This document shows, piece by piece, positions 3,673 through 12,807 of a DNA stretch of 41,236 nucleotides. This stretch comes from an uncultured Prevotellaceae bacterium (GTDB lineage: Bacteria > Bacteroidota > Bacteroidia > Bacteroidales > Muribaculaceae), in assembly GCA_900319525.1 (NCBI GenBank), contig ONOU01000036.1, positions 1 to 41,236 on the forward strand. Direction: 5' to 3'. The translations under genes and the position numbers were made by a program. How positions within the stretch are numbered: the first letter of the stretch is position 1; every line of letters begins with the position of its first letter. The notes under the pieces are model-generated. The model ran no database searches, was not told the origin of the DNA, and was given only the letters and a program-made list of their open reading frames with translations.

Positions 3673-4174
3673 TAGCGGCAGCGAAAGTACAACAAAAACT
3701 TCATAGCAGCAAGAAAAAGGCACAAAGCCTTCTCGACAGGCCTGAAGATGTGTTACGTCAAAAAGCAAAAGGCCGATTTTGACCCTATTTTTTCAATATG
3801 GTGATATTCAGCAGTTTCGACAGTCCGTCATATCATCAATCAGGTGGGGCGGAACTGTTAACGAATCTAAAAAGCATTTTTCTGTCCTCACAGCGCAAAG
3901 GTATCACACGAGCCATCCCGTGTCCATGTCAAAAAGCGGCAACCGGGCAAAACTTTTTTGCCGAAATCGGCAAGAAAATGGGCAAATTTCATGGATAGCG
4001 GTCGATGGTACCGCATCCTCTGAAACACTTTGAAAATCCTCCGAGAATCTCAAACCTATTCTCAAAATCTCAAAGAATCCTCCCACTTCTTTGAAACTTT
4101 TTCGGATACTTTCAAAGAATCTCACAATACCGGGCTTACTGATGGCTTACACTTCTAATAAGTTCTCTTAGGTA
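3673..4174. other. Gene-free region at the edge of the AT-rich island
   Basis: About 500 nt without a convincing gene. It holds a possible minus-strand −7 box TACCTTTG (3896-3903; the nearest TTTG is 26 nt away, so weak), a small hairpin TTGCCG/CGGCAA (3958-3973), and at about 4020-4130 several imperfect copies of a TTTGAGATTCT-like word on the minus strand. A minus-strand reading frame through these copies (to about 3904) has no recognisable domain. The base composition changes from the GC-rich flank to the AT-rich island here, so this may be the insertion edge. Confidence 0.6.
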
Positions 4175-5533
4175 TCAACTGTCTAAGTGCTTCAATATTG
4201 TAGCATGACATCCTTCTAATATCGAGTTTATTACTGAATGCTGGAGTCCAAAAAATGACAACACACAACACAATAGTAGTAGTCTAAGCCGTTTAGCTTG
4301 ATTTATTAATTGCCAGCCAAACAAGGTTTTCGGCTTTCTCGTTTTAGGTACAAAGTGCGAATAGTAATGCCTTGAATCAACAACGGCTTCAATATTCAAT
4401 TCTAACTTGTTTATTTGTTCCACATCCTCAAATTCTGATAATAGCTCGCTAAGAATGGTGTTAAGCAATGTTTTCTGTTTTTTAGATATGTTATTGCTGT
4501 TTTTATATTCCAAATCACGGAATCTCCACCAAAATCCTTCAATTGCTTGAATGATTACCAAAAAGTCAACACTGCTATAGACCTTTTTTCTTTCCAAGCT
4601 GTCTATTAAATGGGATCGAACTGGGGAAATATTCTCTGGCTCAGAATACCATTTTCTTAATAGATCAGCATAATAATCTTTTATAGTTTGATAATCGAAA
4701 AGGAATCCTGTTGTGCGAACAGCTGTTTGGGCTTTTGTTTTTACATTACCAGCTAGATGGATGATGCTTATGGGATGATAGTATTTCTTGTTATCACATG
4801 TCCAATAGAGTTCATTGTCAAATACGATTATACTAGAACTTTTTACGATGCTTAAAGTCGCCAGAGAAAGGAATTGTTCATAAGTGGTTATATCCCTGAG
4901 TATTTCTTTTATAGATGTCTCTTTTTCTTTTGTTATTTTAAGATAAGTATATTGCTCAATTCTGGGCACTAAATGCATCTCAGAACTATTGAAGTTGACA
5001 TCCTGGGCTATGATAACCGATGTCTTATCATCTACTTGCACCTTTTCAATTACATTCATTTCATTTTGATACTGTGTATCAAATGTGATGTTCATTCGAG
5101 TAGTTTCTTGACTTGACAAAGAGATCGTTATTGCGTTTGGCGGACACCAATGTGAGAGTTCTGGAATCCTGACACATGCACAGTAGTTGCATCTATCGTC
5201 TAAACCATTTATGTGTTTTCCAATAAGCAAGTAGTTAGAACTATAACTCACTAGAGGAAAGGTTGCATTAAAATTTATGTTTGCAAAGCGACTTGAGTGG
5301 AAAAGAGTAATATCCTCACCATCAGATGTTTTTCCAAAAATAACATCCACCACCTTCTGCTTGTTAGAGAAAAGAGCATCTAAAGAGCAGTCAAATCCGC
5401 CGAAAAGTTCTAAAACAATATTATTATTGGGGTCGTATGTTAGAATTCCAGCTATCTTATTCTCAGGGTCTGATGGTAAATACCAATAACCCTTAAGCGT
5501 GATTCTCTCATCTATATTATACTTCTTGCTCAT
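4175..5533 (-). CDS. apeA: ApeA-like HEPN-domain anti-phage protein
   Basis: A 452-residue protein I read as ApeA: a beta-rich N-terminal sensor-like domain (GYWYLPSDPENKIAGILTY near residues 15-33, then ELFGGFD and an HSSRFANI block) followed by a helical HEPN domain. The HEPN signature RX4H is present as R388-HYYS-H393, the expected metal-independent RNase site. Family knowledge: ApeA proteins protect against phages, probably by abortive RNA cleavage. The ATG at 5533 is preferred over an upstream TTG at 5542. It starts only 14 nt after the stop of the large restriction-modification gene, so the two are almost certainly co-transcribed. The gene is AT-rich compared with the flanks. Family assignment is by motif and pattern memory, not by alignment. 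Confidence 0.72.
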   Translation of the reverse strand: MSKKYNIDERITLKGYWYLPSDPENKIAGILTYDPNNNIVLELFGGFDCSLDALFSNKQKVVDVIFGKTSDGEDITLFHSSRFANINFNATFPLVSYSSNYLLIGKHINGLDDRCNYCACVRIPELSHWCPPNAITISLSSQETTRMNITFDTQYQNEMNVIEKVQVDDKTSVIIAQDVNFNSSEMHLVPRIEQYTYLKITKEKETSIKEILRDITTYEQFLSLATLSIVKSSSIIVFDNELYWTCDNKKYYHPISIIHLAGNVKTKAQTAVRTTGFLFDYQTIKDYYADLLRKWYSEPENISPVRSHLIDSLERKKVYSSVDFLVIIQAIEGFWWRFRDLEYKNSNNISKKQKTLLNTILSELLSEFEDVEQINKLELNIEAVVDSRHYYSHFVPKTRKPKTLFGWQLINQAKRLRLLLLCCVLSFFGLQHSVINSILEGCHATILKHLDS

Positions 5534-5547
5534 GTGGTTCAATTCTA

Positions 5548-8500
5548 CTATGGTTCAATAAAGACAGGTGTACCCTTTTCTTTTCCAGGATCAATCTCAA
5601 TTAATTGTTCTATTAAGTGTTGTTTGACCAATAGGCTGAGATCCATTTCAAGAGGGGTGATGTTAAAGGTCATATAGCTCTTTCGCGGATGCTTATTTGG
5701 ATAGTTCATCGCTAAGAGTTCATTTTTATTCATCTCTTTATTGTTGGTAACACTGAATGCCGCCAACTTATCTATATTATCCAGATCATATAATATCAAA
5801 ATTGTTGTATTCTTGAATAAAGGACGTTTTTCTTCCATTGAGCCCGTAGTATTGCCCAACCGAACAGTGTAAAGTCCATTAGAAATAATCCATTTTTGGT
5901 AGTTCTTATCCTTATAACACCCAACAAGGATTGTCTTGTCTCCACCAAAGAAGTCAATGATGGACTGGTCGAAACGATTCCACTTGTAACACTCAAATGG
6001 TTCTGCTGCCATAAGTGTATCAGACTCTATATGTTGATAGCCCTCAGTGGATAAATGCAAGTCAATAGTCTTGTTTTCAGTAATATCATCTCCTTGCTTG
6101 TCATCGTCAATTAGTTCTCGACGTAAGACTGCCTCTTTGCGAACAGCCGCTCCGTCACAAACTTCCTTGAGTGAAGTTATCTCGTCTTCAATTTCTCTGA
6201 TTCTTTCAACAATATTCTTTTGCTCTGACATTGAAGGTAGTGGAATTTCGAGATTAGTCAACATATCTTGATTGAGACTCTTTATATTGGCACCATTACT
6301 TCCAGTTGTAAGGCGTTGCCTAACGTTTGAAGAAGAAAGCATATAATATAAGAACTCACTATTCACTTTGTCTGAAATAATACGTACTCTTATTGAAAAA
6401 CCAGAGAATGTCGTTCGTTCTTTTGGCTCTTCATCAATAAGCATAAAGCGCCCAACCAACTCTCTAGAACCATTAGATCTAACTGTTACAAGATCACCTT
6501 CATGCAGAAGGAAAGCTTCATCAACATCCTCTTGGATTGTTATAGTTTGAATATTATCCCATGATGGTGATTTGTTTTCTTTAAAGTCTGCGACACCAAC
6601 AATCCTTACTACACTTTTGCCGTATGTTGATTTTTTATAATTCAACCCATTCTTAAATTGTGCAATAGTGCCAAGTTTAATACTGTTTCCTTTTATTTCG
6701 CTCACAATGCCACGGATTTCTTCTTTCAATTCATTAATCTTTTCATTTGCCGTATTGGCTTCTTTGTCTATCTCATAACACACAGTTACTATTTTATGCT
6801 GTAACTCTTTTGATGGTACTGGAATTTTTATTTGCTTCAAATCATTTGCATATACGTGAGGTTGGGCTGCTCCTTTTTGCAAATTAAATAGAAGATTTTG
6901 ATTCGCCTTTAAGAAATAATAAATAAAACACGTTTCTTCAAAACTATTACCAATAATTGTACTACAATCAGAAGCAAATATTTTTTCCCGCCAAAAGTTG
7001 ACGTACCCTGCATTTGCACCAGAAGCAGACACTGTAATAACATTTTCTGGACGATTATACTTGTTATGCATATAAGCAAAATCGACACCTCCAGCTACAA
7101 CTTTATATTCCCCTTCTTCTAGTTCTGAAGACGTGATGGCTGTGCCTTTTTGAATTTCACAAATATTCCCTAAGATGTCGACAACAATTCCTTTCTTGTA
7201 TCTTATATCTTCTACTTTTTTGTCCACACTTGTCTTTACCGATAGATTAAAAGCTGTTTTGCTGAAGTCAATCAAATCTGTGAGCCTCGAAAACTGCAAT
7301 AGAGCTTTCTTCTCTCCAATAAAAGGCTTGTCAAAAATAACCTTTCCTGTCCCAAAAGAGAATTTGATACATTTATCCGTAATGTGTTTCCGCAGCGCAT
7401 ACGAGAACTTTGATACGTCGTTATCATCGTCAGGATTGTAAAGCGGTGTTTCAATGTATTTTATTGAATTGATGGCTTGAACGATTTCATTATCTTTATC
7501 CTCATCGTCCTCCGAACCATCAGATTCCAGCACATGACTTGTCAGGTATTTTATGCCCTCTTCACCCTTGCGGTTGCTCCAGTCATAGCCTAAAAATCTG
7601 ACCACCTCTGCTTTATTACTCTTGTCGCCTATCTTCTCGGGAGGCGACTGCAAGATGGCAACTATATTGTTTTCCGTCTGAATATAGACATTAAGCTTTT
7701 TGCATTCAATGTCTTTTGCAAAAGCGACGAACTGTCTTCTATATTCAGCTTCTTCAAGTTGCTTGTAGGCATTGCTTAACAGGAAAAGTGCAAATAGCTT
7801 TTTGTATTCCTTTGATTTTTCCTTTATATCAGCCTTAAAATAGGTGGATTTAACAAACCATTCTTTCTGAATGCTTTTGCTTATGCTACTCTTCTTAAAG
7901 TTAAAGGCATAATCTTTGAAGATGCTTGTTTCTTTGAGGTTTTCGCCAAGAATATCTTCCTGCATAAATGCAAAATACTCATCCTTGGGATAGCCCTGTT
8001 TTAGAATGTAGGAATCTATTGCGCCGCTGGTAGTATACTGGGTGTAATCCTTCTTGGCAATGAAAGTGTGAAGCAATCCTTCAGAGTTTTTCTTCACCTT
8101 CTGGGCAAATAGGATAACGGTATTAGTCCCAGTTGAGCCAAAAGTACGACTATTCATGATTGTTATTGCGAGAATGTTGAAGTTGGCAAAAATGATTTCA
8201 CGAGTTCTTGTATAAATATTTTCGTTGCTAAGTAGTGAACTCGGAAGAATTATACCCATCAGGCCATCTTTTTTCAAAAAATGCAGAGCACGTTCAACAA
8301 AGAAACATTCAATTGCCCTATTTGTGGAATAAGCTTTTTCTTCTACATACTTTGCGAGTTCAAACTGGTCACGGTCTTTTTGCTCCATTGTATTCAAGAA
8401 CCCTTTTACGCTGTATGGGGGATTAGCAATAATGCAATCAAAAGACTCTTTATCAAATCCTTGGTATCTCACATCCATAGTGTTCATAAGACTTAATGAG

Positions 8501-10059
8501 TCTTTAAAAACTATGCGAGAGTCGGGACAACCATTTATGATTGTGGCAATTTTTGCTACCTGGCTCAATGTCTGACTTTTCTCGATTCCATATATTTTAG
8601 CCTTGGGGTAATGCTTTACGAACTCTGTTAGGAAATGTCCTGCTCCACAGGCATAATCCAAAACCTTCACTTTATTGGTGTGTGGAAATTGTGGCAAAGA
8701 ATTGATAATGAAGTTTACAATTGGTAGTGGAGTAAAGAATTGTCCCTCAGTTTGATGTACATTCTTGGAAAGAAGGCCTTCAAACAGGTCACCGAAAAAA
8801 TGGTTAGTTTCGCTTGAGCTCAGATTAATGTCTTGTATGAGGGCTGATATCTTTATAAGAATCTGAAAATTCATTTCAAATTCTTCTCTATTCTCCACAT
8901 CAATGAAGTTGAACTTCTTGATGTTGTAGAACTTCATTTCTTCAAAAAGCTCTTTAATCCCATCAAATAATCCATTCTTAATAGAACGATTTGTGTCTTC
9001 AAAAATCTGTTTAATGTCTTCTTCGTCTTTATTAATAACTTCAACATTAAAAAGCTGTTGCTTTCCCAACTGGTAGAGTTTCAATAAGCGGTTGCAGTAT
9101 TCCTTTGGGGTGTCACGGGCTATCCCTTTAAAATAAAACTGCAAGTCTTCTGGATTGTTAAGTTCATCTGTAATCTTGCAAAGGAACAGATCGATAAGGA
9201 TGTAAAACGAGTGCTCAAAATCTGTGATTGCATGATTCCGTAAAATTGTCGCAAACTCATGGTATATCGGACGTATTTCTGCATGTGATAACCCATTCAA
9301 ATCGTTTATTGTATATTTGAGCTTGCCTACGGAATATGCACTAATATCATCTTCAAAAAGACCTTTTGTTTCAAAGGATTTTCCATAGGTCTGATCCCAT
9401 ACTTCAAAATATTTCCCTTGCGCATTTGCAAATGACTTTGCGTTTTCAAGTTCATTGAGACGTTTTTCATTATCTTTCAGTGTGATAATGTGATTCTTTA
9501 GGATGATTTCTTTTTCTTCATAGTCGGCTGCAAAAAGGACAAGGTTCTGGCAAAGCCCCATTTCATTAACAAGTGGACCAAGATAACTGAACAATTGTCC
9601 ACCGTCTTTTTGCATTAAGTTCCATTCCTTGCTGAACTCAGTACCATAAGTCTTGTTTTCTATCAGAACCAGAGGATTGTATTCTTTATCAAAAACAAGG
9701 ATATCACCATAAGAGGGCTTGTTTACATGCCCGACTTTAAATGCCGGCTCAAACACAATGTGTTTAGGTTCGTACCCCTTCTCTAGTAATAGGTGAACAC
9801 AAACTAGACAGACAAAGTTTTCATTATGGCTAAAATCTAACGTTGTATCTCTATGTATAACGAAACCTTTTGCAAGCTTCTCGTTAGTAGGATACTCCCC
9901 GCTTGCAAAGCTTTCGTCAAGGGGTTCATAGCTAATTTTCTTTGAATTAAAGTTAACTGATATGCTGGCTCCAGTAGAGTATTGTTTCGTCCAGATATTA
10001 TTATTTTCTGTATATCCAAAACTTCTTAGAACTTCTTGTAAGTTGTCTTTTGTAATCAT
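5548..10059 (-). CDS. Fused restriction-modification-specificity protein (type IIG / type I-like, RMS in one chain)
   Basis: A 1503-residue single-chain system. In order: an N-terminal nuclease-like domain with GD119-ILVFD and E134-NK136 (PD-(D/E)XK type, HsdR_N-like); a helical linker; an N6-adenine methylase with a QFFTP start (near 440), SAM motif VLDYACGAGHF (466-476) and catalytic NPPY (546-549); then two HsdS-like target-recognition halves (about 955-1090 and 1125-1290), each ending in IPVPS/IPLPS...Q plus a coiled-coil spacer, implying a two-part recognition sequence. Residues about 1330-1503 form an extra C-terminal domain I cannot name. It would cut unmodified DNA and methylate host DNA. 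First gene of an AT-rich two-gene operon with the ApeA-like gene. Confidence 0.88.
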   Translation of the reverse strand: MITKDNLQEVLRSFGYTENNNIWTKQYSTGASISVNFNSKKISYEPLDESFASGEYPTNEKLAKGFVIHRDTTLDFSHNENFVCLVCVHLLLEKGYEPKHIVFEPAFKVGHVNKPSYGDILVFDKEYNPLVLIENKTYGTEFSKEWNLMQKDGGQLFSYLGPLVNEMGLCQNLVLFAADYEEKEIILKNHIITLKDNEKRLNELENAKSFANAQGKYFEVWDQTYGKSFETKGLFEDDISAYSVGKLKYTINDLNGLSHAEIRPIYHEFATILRNHAITDFEHSFYILIDLFLCKITDELNNPEDLQFYFKGIARDTPKEYCNRLLKLYQLGKQQLFNVEVINKDEEDIKQIFEDTNRSIKNGLFDGIKELFEEMKFYNIKKFNFIDVENREEFEMNFQILIKISALIQDINLSSSETNHFFGDLFEGLLSKNVHQTEGQFFTPLPIVNFIINSLPQFPHTNKVKVLDYACGAGHFLTEFVKHYPKAKIYGIEKSQTLSQVAKIATIINGCPDSRIVFKDSLSLMNTMDVRYQGFDKESFDCIIANPPYSVKGFLNTMEQKDRDQFELAKYVEEKAYSTNRAIECFFVERALHFLKKDGLMGIILPSSLLSNENIYTRTREIIFANFNILAITIMNSRTFGSTGTNTVILFAQKVKKNSEGLLHTFIAKKDYTQYTTSGAIDSYILKQGYPKDEYFAFMQEDILGENLKETSIFKDYAFNFKKSSISKSIQKEWFVKSTYFKADIKEKSKEYKKLFALFLLSNAYKQLEEAEYRRQFVAFAKDIECKKLNVYIQTENNIVAILQSPPEKIGDKSNKAEVVRFLGYDWSNRKGEEGIKYLTSHVLESDGSEDDEDKDNEIVQAINSIKYIETPLYNPDDDNDVSKFSYALRKHITDKCIKFSFGTGKVIFDKPFIGEKKALLQFSRLTDLIDFSKTAFNLSVKTSVDKKVEDIRYKKGIVVDILGNICEIQKGTAITSSELEEGEYKVVAGGVDFAYMHNKYNRPENVITVSASGANAGYVNFWREKIFASDCSTIIGNSFEETCFIYYFLKANQNLLFNLQKGAAQPHVYANDLKQIKIPVPSKELQHKIVTVCYEIDKEANTANEKINELKEEIRGIVSEIKGNSIKLGTIAQFKNGLNYKKSTYGKSVVRIVGVADFKENKSPSWDNIQTITIQEDVDEAFLLHEGDLVTVRSNGSRELVGRFMLIDEEPKERTTFSGFSIRVRIISDKVNSEFLYYMLSSSNVRQRLTTGSNGANIKSLNQDMLTNLEIPLPSMSEQKNIVERIREIEDEITSLKEVCDGAAVRKEAVLRRELIDDDKQGDDITENKTIDLHLSTEGYQHIESDTLMAAEPFECYKWNRFDQSIIDFFGGDKTILVGCYKDKNYQKWIISNGLYTVRLGNTTGSMEEKRPLFKNTTILILYDLDNIDKLAAFSVTNNKEMNKNELLAMNYPNKHPRKSYMTFNITPLEMDLSLLVKQHLIEQLIEIDPGKEKGTPVFIEP

Positions 10060-10335
10060 ATCCTCTTTCTTTTTCTCGCTAACTGAAAAAGTTAGGAGTT
10101 TTATCTGATGTTCTTTGTCCTCACAAAACTTGATAGCTCATTATCTGGCCACTTTTCTTAAGTGGAGCATGTATTTCGATTAATAATGCAGCAGGATCTA
10201 TTTACCTTAATAACCAAACCCCAATGCAGTCCCTGCAGGCCGACCAAAGCCTATATAACCGCAAAGGAGTTTGTTATATCGTTCAACTCTCGGTCTTTTG
10301 CAGGTCAAGAATATAAAATATTCTTGTTCCGGACG

Positions 10336-10343
10336 CAAAGATA
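10336..10343 (-). promoter_or_regulatory. Possible −7 box for the restriction-modification operon
   Basis: TATCTTTG on the minus strand fits TAnnTTTG. No TTTG is found at the right distance upstream. The resulting leader would be about 270 nt, long enough for leader-level control. Confidence 0.4.
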
Positions 10344-10450
10344 AGCATTTTTCTTGAAAAATGGGCATATCACATATCTAATGATTTCACACAATCCCAA
10401 ATCTCACAAAAACGCAAATCTGTAATCCGCTGCAAAATTACCCCATCCCA

Positions 10451-10467
10451 GTGCCATATTTAGGCAC
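10451..10467. repeat. GTGCC-N7-GGCAC inverted repeat
   Basis: A 5-bp-arm inverted repeat (10451-10455 with 10463-10467) upstream of the DUF1016 gene. Its GTGCC/GGCAC core is the same as that of the two intragenic inverted repeats at 11021-11087, hinting at one shared recognition site. Confidence 0.5.
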
Positions 10468-10593
10468 CACGAGCAGCAAAAACCTTAAAAAACGGGGGGC
10501 CTGGGGGGAGGAATATTAGGGGAATTATACAATTCCTTGTGGTTGGGGATGAGAATGAATTCTGAATGTGTTCGGTTAATCAGGATTTTGCAG

Positions 10594-10601
10594 TAATTTT
10601 G
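10594..10601 (+). promoter_or_regulatory. Possible −7 box for the DUF1016 gene
   Basis: TAATTTTG fits TAnnTTTG. A weak TTCG (10571-10574) lies 19 nt upstream in place of TTTG. The leader would be about 65 nt. Confidence 0.4.
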
Positions 10602-10672
10602 CTGGCGCTATGAAGACCCTTCATGGTTGATTCCACATAGCACCTAACAGGAACTCGTAGAACGATGATAAT

Positions 10673-11800
10673 ATGAAACGTAAAAATAATAACGACATCG
10701 CCCCACTTGCCCACAGAGATGAGTTTGAAGTGGTGTATTACATCATATCATCACATCGCAACAAGGTAGTTCAAGTCATTAATAACGAATCGCTATTGAT
10801 GATGTGGGAAATCGGCGGTTTTGTCTCTACCAAAATCAAGACTGCCAGCTGGGGTGATGGTGTCGTTAGGCAATTAGCTGAATATATTTACACAAAGGAT
10901 CCAACGGCTAGAGGATGGAGTTACCGCACCCTCTATAAAATGGTTCAATTCTATGACACCTATTCATCAGAGTCTTTTGCAATGGTGCTCTCACAAGCCA
11001 ATGTGCCTGCATCTGATGAATTTGTGCCATTAAGAACGGCACAAAACAGCGATTTAGAATTTGTGCCATTTGAAATGGCACAAATTCCGAATGTATTGTT
11101 CTGCACCGGATGGACCAATCACCAGATCATCCTGAATAGATGCAAAACCGACCAGGAAAGGTTATTCTACATGCTCTACGCCGGTCGCGAACGGTTACAG
11201 AACAAGGAACTGATTCGCGCCATTAAAACGAATGTCATGGATTCATTACTTGGAGGAAAGAACAGGCAGTCCCAGACCATGGCTAAGACATATCCTTCAT
11301 CTTCAACACTATTCAAGGAAAGAATCTATCTTGACATGTTAGGCTTGCCTCTCAAATATAAGGAATCAAAGCTTCGCAAAGAGATTGTCTCGCACATGAA
11401 AGATTTCATTTTGGAGTTGGGTAAAGATTTCTTATTTATCGATGAAGAGCACCGCATTACCATTGGAGGCAAGACTTTTAAGATAGACCTGTTATTCTAT
11501 CATCGCCTGCTTCAATGCATGGTTGCAATTGAATTAAAAACGACAGAATTCCATCCCAAGGATCTGGGGCAATTAGAGTTCTATCTCGAGGCGCTTGATC
11601 AAGAAGAGAAGCGCCATAACGAGAACCCAAGTATAGGCATCCTGTTATGTAAAGAAGCCGACTTGGAGGTAGTTCGTTACGCGCTCAACAGGAGTATGTC
11701 TCCCACAATGGTGACCCAATATAAAGAGCAGTTACAAGTTGGCGGAGTCATTCAGCGCAGCTTAGTTGAGTTTTGCAAGTTCTTAGGCAACGAGAAATAA
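10673..11800 (+). CDS. DUF1016/YhcG-family PD-(D/E)XK nuclease
   Basis: A 375-residue protein with the two-domain build of the YhcG family: an N-terminal DUF1016_N winged-helix-like part (about 15-105, with LLMMWEIGGFVS and GWSYRTLYKM) and a C-terminal nuclease (about 205-360). Catalytic residues are visible: D272 in FKIDLLFYHR, E287-LK289 in AIELKT, and Q300 in LGQLEFYLEAL. Between them, residues about 111-140 form a repeat-like linker (EFVPLRTAQ, EFVPFEMAQ) encoded by DNA inverted repeats. Family members are often found next to restriction-modification loci, as here; the exact role is not firmly known. It ends 26 nt before a core-like transporter gene of very different base composition. Confidence 0.92.
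   Translation: MKRKNNNDIAPLAHRDEFEVVYYIISSHRNKVVQVINNESLLMMWEIGGFVSTKIKTASWGDGVVRQLAEYIYTKDPTARGWSYRTLYKMVQFYDTYSSESFAMVLSQANVPASDEFVPLRTAQNSDLEFVPFEMAQIPNVLFCTGWTNHQIILNRCKTDQERLFYMLYAGRERLQNKELIRAIKTNVMDSLLGGKNRQSQTMAKTYPSSSTLFKERIYLDMLGLPLKYKESKLRKEIVSHMKDFILELGKDFLFIDEEHRITIGGKTFKIDLLFYHRLLQCMVAIELKTTEFHPKDLGQLEFYLEALDQEEKRHNENPSIGILLCKEADLEVVRYALNRSMSPTMVTQYKEQLQVGGVIQRSLVEFCKFLGNEK
11021..11087. repeat. Two inverted repeats inside the DUF1016 gene
   Basis: Repeat 1: TTTGTGCC (11021-11028) with GGCACAAA (11038-11045). Repeat 2: a perfect 14-bp palindrome (11057-11070 with 11074-11087, loop TGA). Both left arms carry GAATTTGTGCC, so they are also direct repeats. They encode the linker repeats EFVPxxxAQ. 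Confidence 0.75.
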
Positions 11801-11826
11801 AATTTTCACCTTGATAACCACACGCT

Positions 11827-12807
11827 ATGAAGACCATTATCAATTTCTTGAAGAATTGGACGTTGCCCAGCGCGATTGTGTCGGGCACAGTCATCTATCT
11901 GATATTCTACTGGGTTCGGGCCCTGGACCCCGTGAGCGAGGTGATGGAGCCGATTTTTGACACCATCCTGCCGCTGTTCATGAGCCTGATATTGTTCACG
12001 ACATTCCTGCGGGTGGATTTCCACAAGATGCGCCCGGCGATGTGGCACCTGTGGGTGTCGGTGTTCCAGGTGGTGCTGGTGGCGCTGCTGGTGGCACTCA
12101 TCCTGGGCTTTGACATGAAGGGTAAGGACCTGATCCTGATGGAGGGCATCTTGACGTGCGTCATCTGTCCCGGTGCCAGCGCGGCTCCCGTGGTGACGGG
12201 CAAGCTGGGCGGTAACCTGGAGACGATGACCAGCTATGTGTTCCTGAGCAACCTGGTGACCGTCGTGGCCGTGCCCGTGGTGTTCCCGCTCATTGACCAG
12301 GGCGTGGACATCGACTTCTGGAGCGCCTTCTGGATGATCATGTACAAGGTGTTCCTGGTGCTGGTGCTGCCGCTCATCGGCGCCTATCTCGTGAAGCATT
12401 ACCTGCCGCGCGTGCAGCAGCGCCTGGTCGCCATCCAGGACCTGTCGTTCTACATGTGGGGCATCTCGCTGACCATCGTCACCGGTTGCACGGTGAAGAA
12501 TATCATTAACAGCGGAGCTCCCGTGATGTTCCTGGTCACGATCGCGCTGGTGTCGCTGCTCATCTGCCTGGCGCAGTTCGCCGTGGGCCGGTACATTGGG
12601 CACTTCTTCGGCACCGTCATCGAGAGCGGCCAAGGGCTGGGGCAAAAGAACACGGCCTTTGCCGTGTGGATTGCCTACACCTACCTGAGCCCGCTGTCGG
12701 TGGCAGGCCCGGGCTGCTACATCCTGTGGCAAAACGCCATCAACAGCCTGGAAATCTGGCATCACCGCCGCCAGCAGGAGTCTCGCGCTAAGGCGTTAAG
12801 ACGGTAA
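11827..12807 (+). CDS. Bile acid:sodium symporter (SBF)-like transporter
   Basis: A 326-residue inner-membrane protein with about 9-10 hydrophobic segments. It resembles the SBF/BASS superfamily: LPLFMSLILFTTFLRVDF near residue 50, CPGASAAPVVTGKLGGN near 118 (a crossover-type motif), and GQGLGQKNTAFAVWIAYTYLSP near 270 followed by GPGCYILWQN, all typical of this family. The substrate is not known; sodium-coupled uptake of an organic anion is the family expectation. The start ATG at 11827 gives a normal N-terminus. No promoter is evident in the 26 nt after the DUF1016 gene. The hotdog thioesterase gene follows 27 nt later, so the two may form one transcript. Confidence 0.82.
   Translation: MKTIINFLKNWTLPSAIVSGTVIYLIFYWVRALDPVSEVMEPIFDTILPLFMSLILFTTFLRVDFHKMRPAMWHLWVSVFQVVLVALLVALILGFDMKGKDLILMEGILTCVICPGASAAPVVTGKLGGNLETMTSYVFLSNLVTVVAVPVVFPLIDQGVDIDFWSAFWMIMYKVFLVLVLPLIGAYLVKHYLPRVQQRLVAIQDLSFYMWGISLTIVTGCTVKNIINSGAPVMFLVTIALVSLLICLAQFAVGRYIGHFFGTVIESGQGLGQKNTAFAVWIAYTYLSPLSVAGPGCYILWQNAINSLEIWHHRRQQESRAKALRR

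What the first reader, a model, noticed from the sequence alone, without database searches (positions are those of the whole stretch)
4175..10059. Two-gene defence operon: fused R-M-S protein plus ApeA-like HEPN RNase
A 1503-residue nuclease-methylase-double-TRD protein is followed after 14 nt by an ApeA-like protein with an intact RX4H site, in an AT-rich island. ApeA is known mainly as a stand-alone system. Tight coupling suggests a layered design: restriction first, then suicidal RNA cleavage if restriction is blocked. Seen: order, spacing, motifs. Inference: functional link.
Basis: partly seen in the sequence, partly recalled or inferred. Interest (0 to 1): 0.75.

Follow-up and report, generated by a model that had tools for sequence, protein, structure and literature searches.

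The report
Restriction enzyme paired with suicide RNase
A gut bacterium carries, on one inserted DNA segment, a gene for an all-in-one DNA-cutting defence enzyme followed at once by a gene for a predicted RNA-cutting suicide protein; such partnerships have been proposed before, and this exact pair turned up in no other genome sampled, so it is a modest but testable example.

Summary
On the minus strand, a 1503-aa single-chain R-M-S enzyme (5548-10059; nuclease, adenine methylase, two target-recognition domains) is followed 14 nt later (5 nt if TTG is the start) by ApeA (4175-5542; ApeA_NTD1 + HEPN_Apea). The RX4H site is aligned in 39 of 40 homologues. Both genes lie in an AT-rich insert; 6 of 8 same-genus stretches show an empty site and none of the 8 holds either gene.

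The exact pair was found in no other sampled genome, and the closest relatives of each gene lack the other. But ApeA recurs beside R-M genes: 6 of 18 genome loci have a same-strand R-M gene within 100 nt (Shedu control 1 of 17, p=0.052, method biased towards ApeA). Two of these are type IIG enzymes of another class. The theme and the 'second line' model were published in 2013 (PMC3710099).

Many ApeA homologues stand alone (no adjacent R-M gene in 13 of 13 plasmid and 8 of 9 viral loci), so ApeA probably senses infection itself. A cited 2026 preprint title says deoxydinucleotides activate ApeA; restriction could therefore feed it. That link is untested.

The parts
3698..10587 (.). AT-rich inserted unit; its only ORFs over 90 aa are the R-M-S gene and ApeA
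   Evidence: Homology to empty same-genus sites stops at about 3697 and resumes at 10588 (promoter copy) and about 11819; empty in 6 of 8 stretches; ORFs; GC 0.35-0.38 from 4001 to 10000
5548..10059 (-). Single-chain R-M-S enzyme, 1503 aa, type IIG, AloI-like layout (nuclease-methylase-TRD-TRD)
   Evidence: PADLOC REase_MTase_IIG PDLC03624 834 bits; Pfam N6_Mtase, Methylase_S in two stretches; RM.BsaXI best solved relative, 1.3e-63 with the profile of 8
9583..9750 (-). PD-(D/E)XK nuclease motif, residues 104-159 (E104, D119, E134-N-K136, Q155, Y159)
   Evidence: E104, D119, [ED]134, K136, Q155, Y159 kept in 8 of 8 proteins; HSDR_N_2 weak, 2e-4, below cut-off
8071..8805 (-). N6-adenine methylase domain, residues 419-663; NPPY at residues 546-549 (8413-8424)
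   Evidence: Pfam N6_Mtase 3e-31; N-P-P kept in 8 of 8, Y in 7 of 8
6724..7173 (-). First target-recognition domain, residues 963-1112
   Evidence: Pfam Methylase_S best stretch
6154..6681 (-). Second target-recognition domain, residues about 1127-1302
   Evidence: Two Methylase_S stretches in Pfam, the second without printed coordinates; bounds from PADLOC type I specificity models
5551..6111 (-). C-terminal extension of the R-M-S protein, residues 1317-1503, no known domain
   Evidence: 0-1 residues beyond 1316 in 7 of 7 aligned relatives; no match in plasmids, none convincing in PDB (best E 0.12), none in the loci held then
4175..5542 (-). ApeA-like protein, 455 aa from TTG 5542 (452 aa from ATG 5533)
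   Evidence: Pfam ApeA_NTD1 8e-37, HEPN_Apea 5e-12; PADLOC PDC-S58 177 bits
4649..5494 (-). ApeA_NTD1, beta-rich putative sensor domain, residues 17-298
   Evidence: Pfam; mostly strands in a model of mean pLDDT 78.6; sensor role is inference
4244..4555 (-). HEPN_Apea domain, residues 330-433
   Evidence: Pfam 46.8 bits, cut-off 24.4; helical in the model
4355..4372 (-). RX4H site R391-HYYS-H396
   Evidence: R and H aligned in 39 of 40 ApeA homologues
5534..5547 (-). 14-nt gap between the R-M-S stop codon and the ApeA ATG
   Evidence: Sequence

Best explanation
This is a two-gene anti-phage cassette carried on one horizontally acquired insert. The first gene makes an AloI-like single-chain type IIG enzyme that methylates host DNA and, if it works as AloI does, cuts unmodified DNA on both sides of a bipartite site. 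The second gene is probably on the same transcript and makes ApeA. ApeA's N-terminal beta-rich domain is the likely infection sensor and its C-terminal HEPN domain the likely RNase that stops the infected cell. ApeA most likely acts as a separate, self-triggered second layer that benefits from being expressed with the R-M enzyme. It is less likely to be a toxin held inactive by that enzyme. Shown: gene content, motifs, spacing, the insert, and repeated ApeA/R-M neighbourhoods. Inferred: co-transcription, RNase activity, abortive action and any trigger.
For: Domains and motifs. Spacing and strand. The insert. ApeA beside R-M genes elsewhere: hsdM-hsdS-apeA-hsdR with 4-nt overlaps in the same genus (L016); hsdM-hsdS-apeA, two genes, hsdR on a viral contig (L056); inside a type I operon in L036; a different type IIG enzyme 10 nt upstream in L068 and 33 nt downstream in L039; a methylase 18 nt upstream in L067. 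Self-triggering (inference): 0 of 13 plasmid and 1 of 9 viral ApeA loci have a same-strand R-M gene within 100 nt.
Against: The exact pair was found in one genome only. The window ApeA's nearest relatives (L006, L007, 52% and 49% identity) and the nearest R-M-S relative (L040, 60-62%) lack the partner gene in the DNA held. The R-M adjacency of ApeA is only borderline against a Shedu control (6 of 18 versus 1 of 17, one-sided p=0.052), within 10 kb it is not significant (9 of 18 versus 6 of 17, p=0.30), and over all 40 ApeA loci it is not significant (7 of 40 versus 1 of 17, p=0.24). Detection favoured ApeA, because the R-M reference proteins came from ApeA loci. Foldseek gave no match at E<=0.001.
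Confidence: 0.5

Rival explanations
1. Restriction-fed ApeA. Cutting by the R-M-S enzyme, followed by host exonucleases, produces deoxydinucleotides that bind ApeA_NTD1 and switch on the HEPN RNase. Suicide then follows successful or overwhelmed DNA destruction, not blocked restriction.
For: [quoted passage not shown] AloI-like and BcgI-like enzymes cut on both sides of their site (PMC3874165 passages). Deoxydinucleotide-specific nucleases exist in genomic islands, 41.9% of their genes within 10 genes of known defence genes (PMC11706625 passages). ApeA recurs beside unrelated DNA-cutting systems.
Against: The preprint itself could not be read, so which ApeA it used and how closely it resembles this one are unknown. 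No ligand pocket was tested here. Standalone ApeA must be fed by other DNA breakdown. PMC11706625 does not mention ApeA or HEPN.
Confidence: 0.2
2. PrrC-like guard. The R-M-S protein binds ApeA and keeps it off; a phage anti-restriction factor releases it.
For: Described for PrrC/PrrI and proposed for R-M-linked HEPN proteins in general in a survey that lists ApeA among the R-M-embedded families (PMC3710099). Tight spacing. The unmatched C-terminal extension could be a docking domain (inference).
Against: Homologues without an R-M neighbour are common. The R-M partners differ in kind: type I, Eco57I-like IIG, AloI-like IIG, N6_N4 methylase. PrrC has an ABC ATPase regulator; none was detected in ApeA.
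Confidence: 0.13
3. Co-carriage only. Two independent defence genes share an insert and perhaps a transcript without acting on each other.
For: The exact pair is not conserved in the samples. Defence genes cluster anyway: 6 of 17 Shedu loci have R-M-like genes within 10 kb, and one sits inside a type I operon (L115).
Against: The insert's only ORFs over 90 aa are these two, 14 nt apart. R-M linkage of ApeA changed several times on the tree: 7 changes, at least 3 forced by well-supported branches; that label also includes L036, L037 and L070, where the R-M genes are not adjacent on the same strand.
Confidence: 0.17

Closest known systems
HEPN/R-M couplings, ApeA family entry (Anantharaman et al. 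2013, PMC3710099)
   Same: ApeA-NTD1/HEPN protein, family listed as embedded in R-M operons; R-M-linked HEPN proteins proposed as second line of defence
   Different: There the ApeA note is for epsilonproteobacteria; here Bacteroidota, with an AloI-like single-chain type IIG partner. The gene-neighbourhood figure of that paper was not seen
ApeA (Gao et al. 2020, paper itself not read; from passages of PMC7699616 and recall)
   Same: HEPN protein of the same name, in a defence system
   Different: Not compared by sequence here; this one sits directly behind an R-M gene
PrrC with PrrI (passages of PMC3710099)
   Same: R-M system plus HEPN RNase in one locus
   Different: PrrC has an ABC ATPase and works with type Ic hsdMSR; here no ATPase was detected and the R-M enzyme is one chain
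AloI/PpiI/TstI/CjeI single-chain type IIG enzymes (passages of PMC3874165)
   Same: Nuclease, gamma methylase and two TRDs in one chain
   Different: AloI class about 1250 aa; here 1503 aa with a 187-residue extension. No direct sequence comparison with AloI was made
PADLOC candidate PDC-S58
   Same: Window ApeA matches this model, 177 bits
   Different: The R-M-S gene matches a separate PADLOC model (REase_MTase_IIG); that PDC systems are untested single-protein candidates is recalled

Membership tests
ApeA / PDC-S58 | ApeA_NTD1 N-terminal domain | tested here: met
   PF18862 127.6 bits, cut-off 25.5
ApeA / PDC-S58 | HEPN_Apea C-terminal domain with RX4H | tested here: met
   PF18739 46.8 bits, cut-off 24.4; R391 and H396 aligned in 39 of 40 homologues
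ApeA / PDC-S58 | HEPN fold by structure | tested here: inconclusive
   Model pLDDT 78.6, pTM 0.80, helical C-terminal half; Foldseek found nothing at E<=0.001; the second aligner was unavailable
ApeA / PDC-S58 | RNase activity and phage protection | not testable with these tools
   Needs bench work
AloI-like single-chain type IIG | PD-(D/E)XK nuclease at the N-terminus | tested here: met
   Motif residues kept in 8 of 8; Pfam HSDR_N_2 itself is below cut-off
AloI-like single-chain type IIG | Gamma N6 methylase followed by two TRDs in one chain | tested here: met
   layout as described in PMC3874165
AloI-like single-chain type IIG | Sequence relationship to AloI itself | not tested
   AloI sequence not compared; nearest solved relative is RM.BsaXI
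AloI-like single-chain type IIG | Cleavage on both sides of a bipartite site | not testable with these tools
   Needs purified enzyme
PrrC-like guarded anticodon nuclease | ABC ATPase regulator fused to HEPN | tested here: not met
   No ATPase family in ApeA at E<=1 in Pfam
PrrC-like guarded anticodon nuclease | HEPN protein held inactive by the R-M complex | not testable with these tools
   Needs binding and toxicity tests

The most novel reading that the evidence does not exclude
The pair is a restriction-fed suicide circuit: an AloI-like enzyme that excises short DNA pieces supplies the deoxydinucleotide signal that its co-expressed ApeA reads. The repeated recruitment of ApeA beside unrelated R-M classes would then reflect one shared chemical link (DNA breakdown products) rather than protein-protein guarding.
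Probability: 0.18. Interest if true: 0.75.

Novelty: new member of a known kind. Interest (0 to 1): 0.38.

Why it matters
How suicide RNases such as ApeA are triggered next to restriction systems is an open question. This cassette needs only two genes. It separates two concrete models, release when restriction fails and feeding by restriction products, and inactivating the nuclease would help to tell them apart.

Tried and rejected
A first AlphaFold model with 4 sequences was unusable (pLDDT 37.8); a second with 13 gave pLDDT 78.6. Foldseek on that model gave 466 matches at E<=10 and none at E<=0.001; the 50 listed name no HEPN protein, so I make no fold claim. YhcG (10673-11800) was considered as a third operon gene and rejected: it is divergent, and a short duplication of the resident gene's start (16 nt, 94% identical) flanks it. 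The 187-residue extension gave no convincing homologue; alone it was not searched against whole genomes. Bacteroidota-type -7 strings (recalled consensus) were found on the minus strand at 10343 and 10440, without the -33 element I looked for, so nothing is claimed. Viral scans with the single window proteins found no relative, and phage records had no match.

Limits of the counts. The genome samples (198, 393, 101, 395) overlap and all but the genus one were drawn from larger groups. Different queries and cut-offs were used. The R-M-S search was run on the family and order samples only, and scored at most 2 candidates per genome. Several ApeA loci lie near contig ends (L006, L007, L008, L038, L039, L066, L069 and, among viral ones, L059, L060, L064), so R-M neighbours may be missed. 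L008 and L017 are the same contig and were counted once. For plasmids, 13 loci were read, chosen by hand as one per species: 8 from the 45 records, 4 from the 12 and 1 from the 2; 32 of the 45 are Enterococcus, represented by one. Of the 45, 5 were not listed and not read, the 2 Klebsiella ones among them. About 6 kb or less was held on each side of plasmid loci. The empty-site test used 8 of the 30 genomes with a left-neighbour match, chosen among the best matches.
Full report
What is there. The window lies in a draft genome of 54 contigs. Its family is Muribaculaceae by inference: a same-family genome, G070, has a 9378-base contig that corresponds to the named record CAMWIJ010000080.1 of an uncultured Muribaculaceae bacterium. 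On the minus strand, 5548-10059 encodes a 1503-residue protein and 4175-5542 a 455-residue protein. The second can start at ATG 5533, 14 nt after the stop codon of the first, or at TTG 5542, 5 nt after it. GC content per kb is 0.35-0.38 from 4001 to 10000, 0.40-0.44 from 10001 to 12000, and 0.47-0.63 elsewhere.

The first protein. Pfam finds N6_Mtase (3e-31) and Methylase_S (1e-30, two stretches), with a sub-threshold HSDR_N_2 match. PADLOC gives a type IIG enzyme model 834 bits over residues 1-1316. In an alignment of 8 proteins the nuclease residues E104, D119, E/D134, K136, Q155 and Y159 are all kept, N-P-P of the NPPY is kept in 8 of 8, and its Y in 7 of 8. A profile of these 8 matches RM.BsaXI (1.3e-63) and type I S subunits among solved structures. 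This nuclease-methylase-TRD-TRD chain is the layout that the review PMC3874165 (passages read) gives for AloI and CjeI, about 1250 aa, which cut on both sides of a bipartite site. AloI itself was not compared. The window protein has 187 further residues (1317-1503) where the other 7 have 0 or 1. No homologue of this extension was found in plasmids or in the loci then held, and none convincing in the PDB.

The second protein. ApeA_NTD1 (127.6 bits, cut-off 25.5) and HEPN_Apea (46.8, cut-off 24.4) are both met; PADLOC calls it PDC-S58. In 40 homologues the R and H of RX4H are aligned in 39; the exception, L084, has gaps there. An AlphaFold model from 13 sequences has mean pLDDT 78.6 and pTM 0.80, with a strand-rich N-terminal and a helical C-terminal part. 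Foldseek against the PDB gave no match at E<=0.001, so the HEPN assignment rests on sequence.

The insert. I took 8 same-genus stretches around the left neighbour gene, out of 30 genomes with a match. In 6 of them (L127-L130, L132, L134) window positions near 3697 and near 11820 are joined over 50 to 420 nt. In L131 the left flank is there, but the right-hand gene is not found in the roughly 9.5 kb held beyond it; in L133 the right-hand gene lies some 7 kb away and the other way round. None of the 8 holds ApeA, the R-M-S gene or YhcG. The resident promoter region and first codons of the right-hand gene occur at 10588-10621, and the start again at 11823-11838, with YhcG (10673-11800) between them. 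The simplest reading is that the R-M-S/ApeA unit (about 3698-10587) and YhcG are separate insertions. The only ORFs over 90 aa in the first unit are the two genes of the finding.

Is the pair conserved? Not in what was sampled. ApeA was found in 5 of 198 family genomes, 5 of 393 order genomes, 2 of 101 genus genomes and 8 of 395 phylum genomes, each count including the window's own. R-M-S relatives at E<=1e-60 were in 4 of 198 and 10 of 393, again with the own genome; at most 2 candidates per genome were scored there. Only the window's own genome is in both kinds of list. None of 13 other R-M-S loci, in 12 genomes, has an ApeA hit in the DNA held; 9 of the 13 include sequence beyond the 3' end. 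The nearest ApeA relatives, L006 (52%) and L007 (49%), have no R-M gene detected in the DNA held; L006 follows a DndH/HerA-like ATPase gene by 7 nt.

Is ApeA with R-M genes in general a theme? Yes, within limits. Of 18 genome loci, 6 have a same-strand R-M gene within 100 nt: the window; L014 (hsdS piece, 43 nt); L016 (hsdM-hsdS-apeA-hsdR, 4-nt overlaps, same genus); L039 (a type IIG enzyme 33 nt downstream); L067 (a methylase 18 nt upstream); and L068 (a type IIG enzyme 10 nt upstream). Three more have type I genes nearby: L036 on the same strand with other genes between, L037 and L070 on the opposite strand (identities). The other 9 have no R-M hit in the DNA held. One of 9 viral contigs (L056) has the type I arrangement. 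Of 13 plasmid loci 0 have an adjacent R-M gene; 2 (L075, L083) have an HsdR-like hit further off, and L083 also has an annotated restriction endonuclease about 2 kb away. Genome loci differ from plasmid and viral ones (6 of 18 versus 1 of 22, p=0.024). The type IIG enzymes of L068 and L039 are related to each other (23% over an 815-column alignment) but match the window enzyme only over the methylase core, so at least two classes of type IIG enzyme lie beside ApeA. On the tree of 40 ApeA proteins the R-M label (10 rows) needs 7 changes, at least 3 of them forced by well-supported branches; 26 of 500 shuffles are as low, so there is some clustering, and several branches are long and unsure.

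Control. With the same script, 1 of 17 Shedu loci has a same-strand R-M gene within 100 nt, and 6 of 17 have one within 10 kb. Fisher one-sided p is 0.052 (6 of 18 versus 1 of 17), 0.30 (9 of 18 versus 6 of 17) and 0.24 (all 40 ApeA loci, 7, versus 1 of 17). The R-M reference proteins came from ApeA loci, which favours ApeA. The enrichment is therefore suggestive, not established.

Mechanism. Many ApeA proteins have no R-M neighbour, including those on plasmids and viral contigs. A protein that works alone must carry its own trigger, which argues against a model in which the R-M enzyme is the only brake. The 2013 HEPN survey (PMC3710099; abstract, passages and section 10 read) lists ApeA in R-M operons of epsilonproteobacteria and proposes, by analogy with PrrC, that R-M-linked HEPN RNases are released when restriction is neutralised or overwhelmed. 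A 2026 preprint, known to me only by its title in the reference list of PMC13405049, reports that deoxydinucleotides activate ApeA. Nothing here tests which is right. I put most weight on a self-triggered second layer, less on specific feeding, co-carriage and guarding.

Novelty. The kind (HEPN RNase coupled to R-M) and the ApeA-with-R-M theme are published. The search for type IIG with HEPN and related words listed 15 of 117 papers, none with ApeA and a type IIG enzyme in its title; apart from PMC3710099 and passages of PMC3874165 they were not read, and the 2013 neighbourhood figure was not seen. Searches for ApeA showed no such paper by title. I call it a new member of a known kind.

Noticed in passing
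window 10588-11838: The promoter region and first codons of the resident gene at 11827-12807 occur at 10588-10621, and the start is repeated at 11823-11838, with YhcG/PDC-S02 (10673-11800) between: probably a separate insertion at a start codon that may have taken over the resident promoter.
   Followed up: partly
window 5551-6111: The 187-residue C-terminal extension of the R-M-S enzyme has no recognised relative in the searches made.
   Followed up: partly
L019:5350-6453 and L039:6746-7204: YhcG-like genes also lie within about 1.1 kb of type IIG genes in two other genomes.
   Followed up: no
L056:4805-14112: A viral contig carries hsdM-hsdS-apeA, two further genes and hsdR, the core closely matching the same-genus locus L016.
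   Followed up: no
L065:8173-11956: Kinase gene (PD-T4-6-like) 15 nt before ApeA, and a PD-T4-1-like gene 13 nt after it: a three-gene same-strand cluster.
   Followed up: no
L072:5986-8950: On a Bacillus subtilis plasmid record, the ApeA-like gene lies just upstream of the annotated aimR and aimP genes of a phage lysis-lysogeny system.
   Followed up: no
L071:6791-14183: A divergent ApeA-like gene sits 10-11 nt from each neighbour within a run of PSCyt/DUF1501 genes, an unusual place for a defence gene.
   Followed up: no
L014:9673-14828: ApeA next to an hsdS piece, with another hsdS-like piece and an hsdS on the opposite strand, which could be an invertible specificity locus.
   Followed up: no
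L115:2148-9901: A Shedu gene lies between hsdS and hsdR of a type I operon, with 20- and 10-nt gaps.
   Followed up: no
L131:1-9549: At the same chromosomal site this relative has the left flank but no right-hand gene in 9.5 kb: another insert or a rearrangement there.
   Followed up: no
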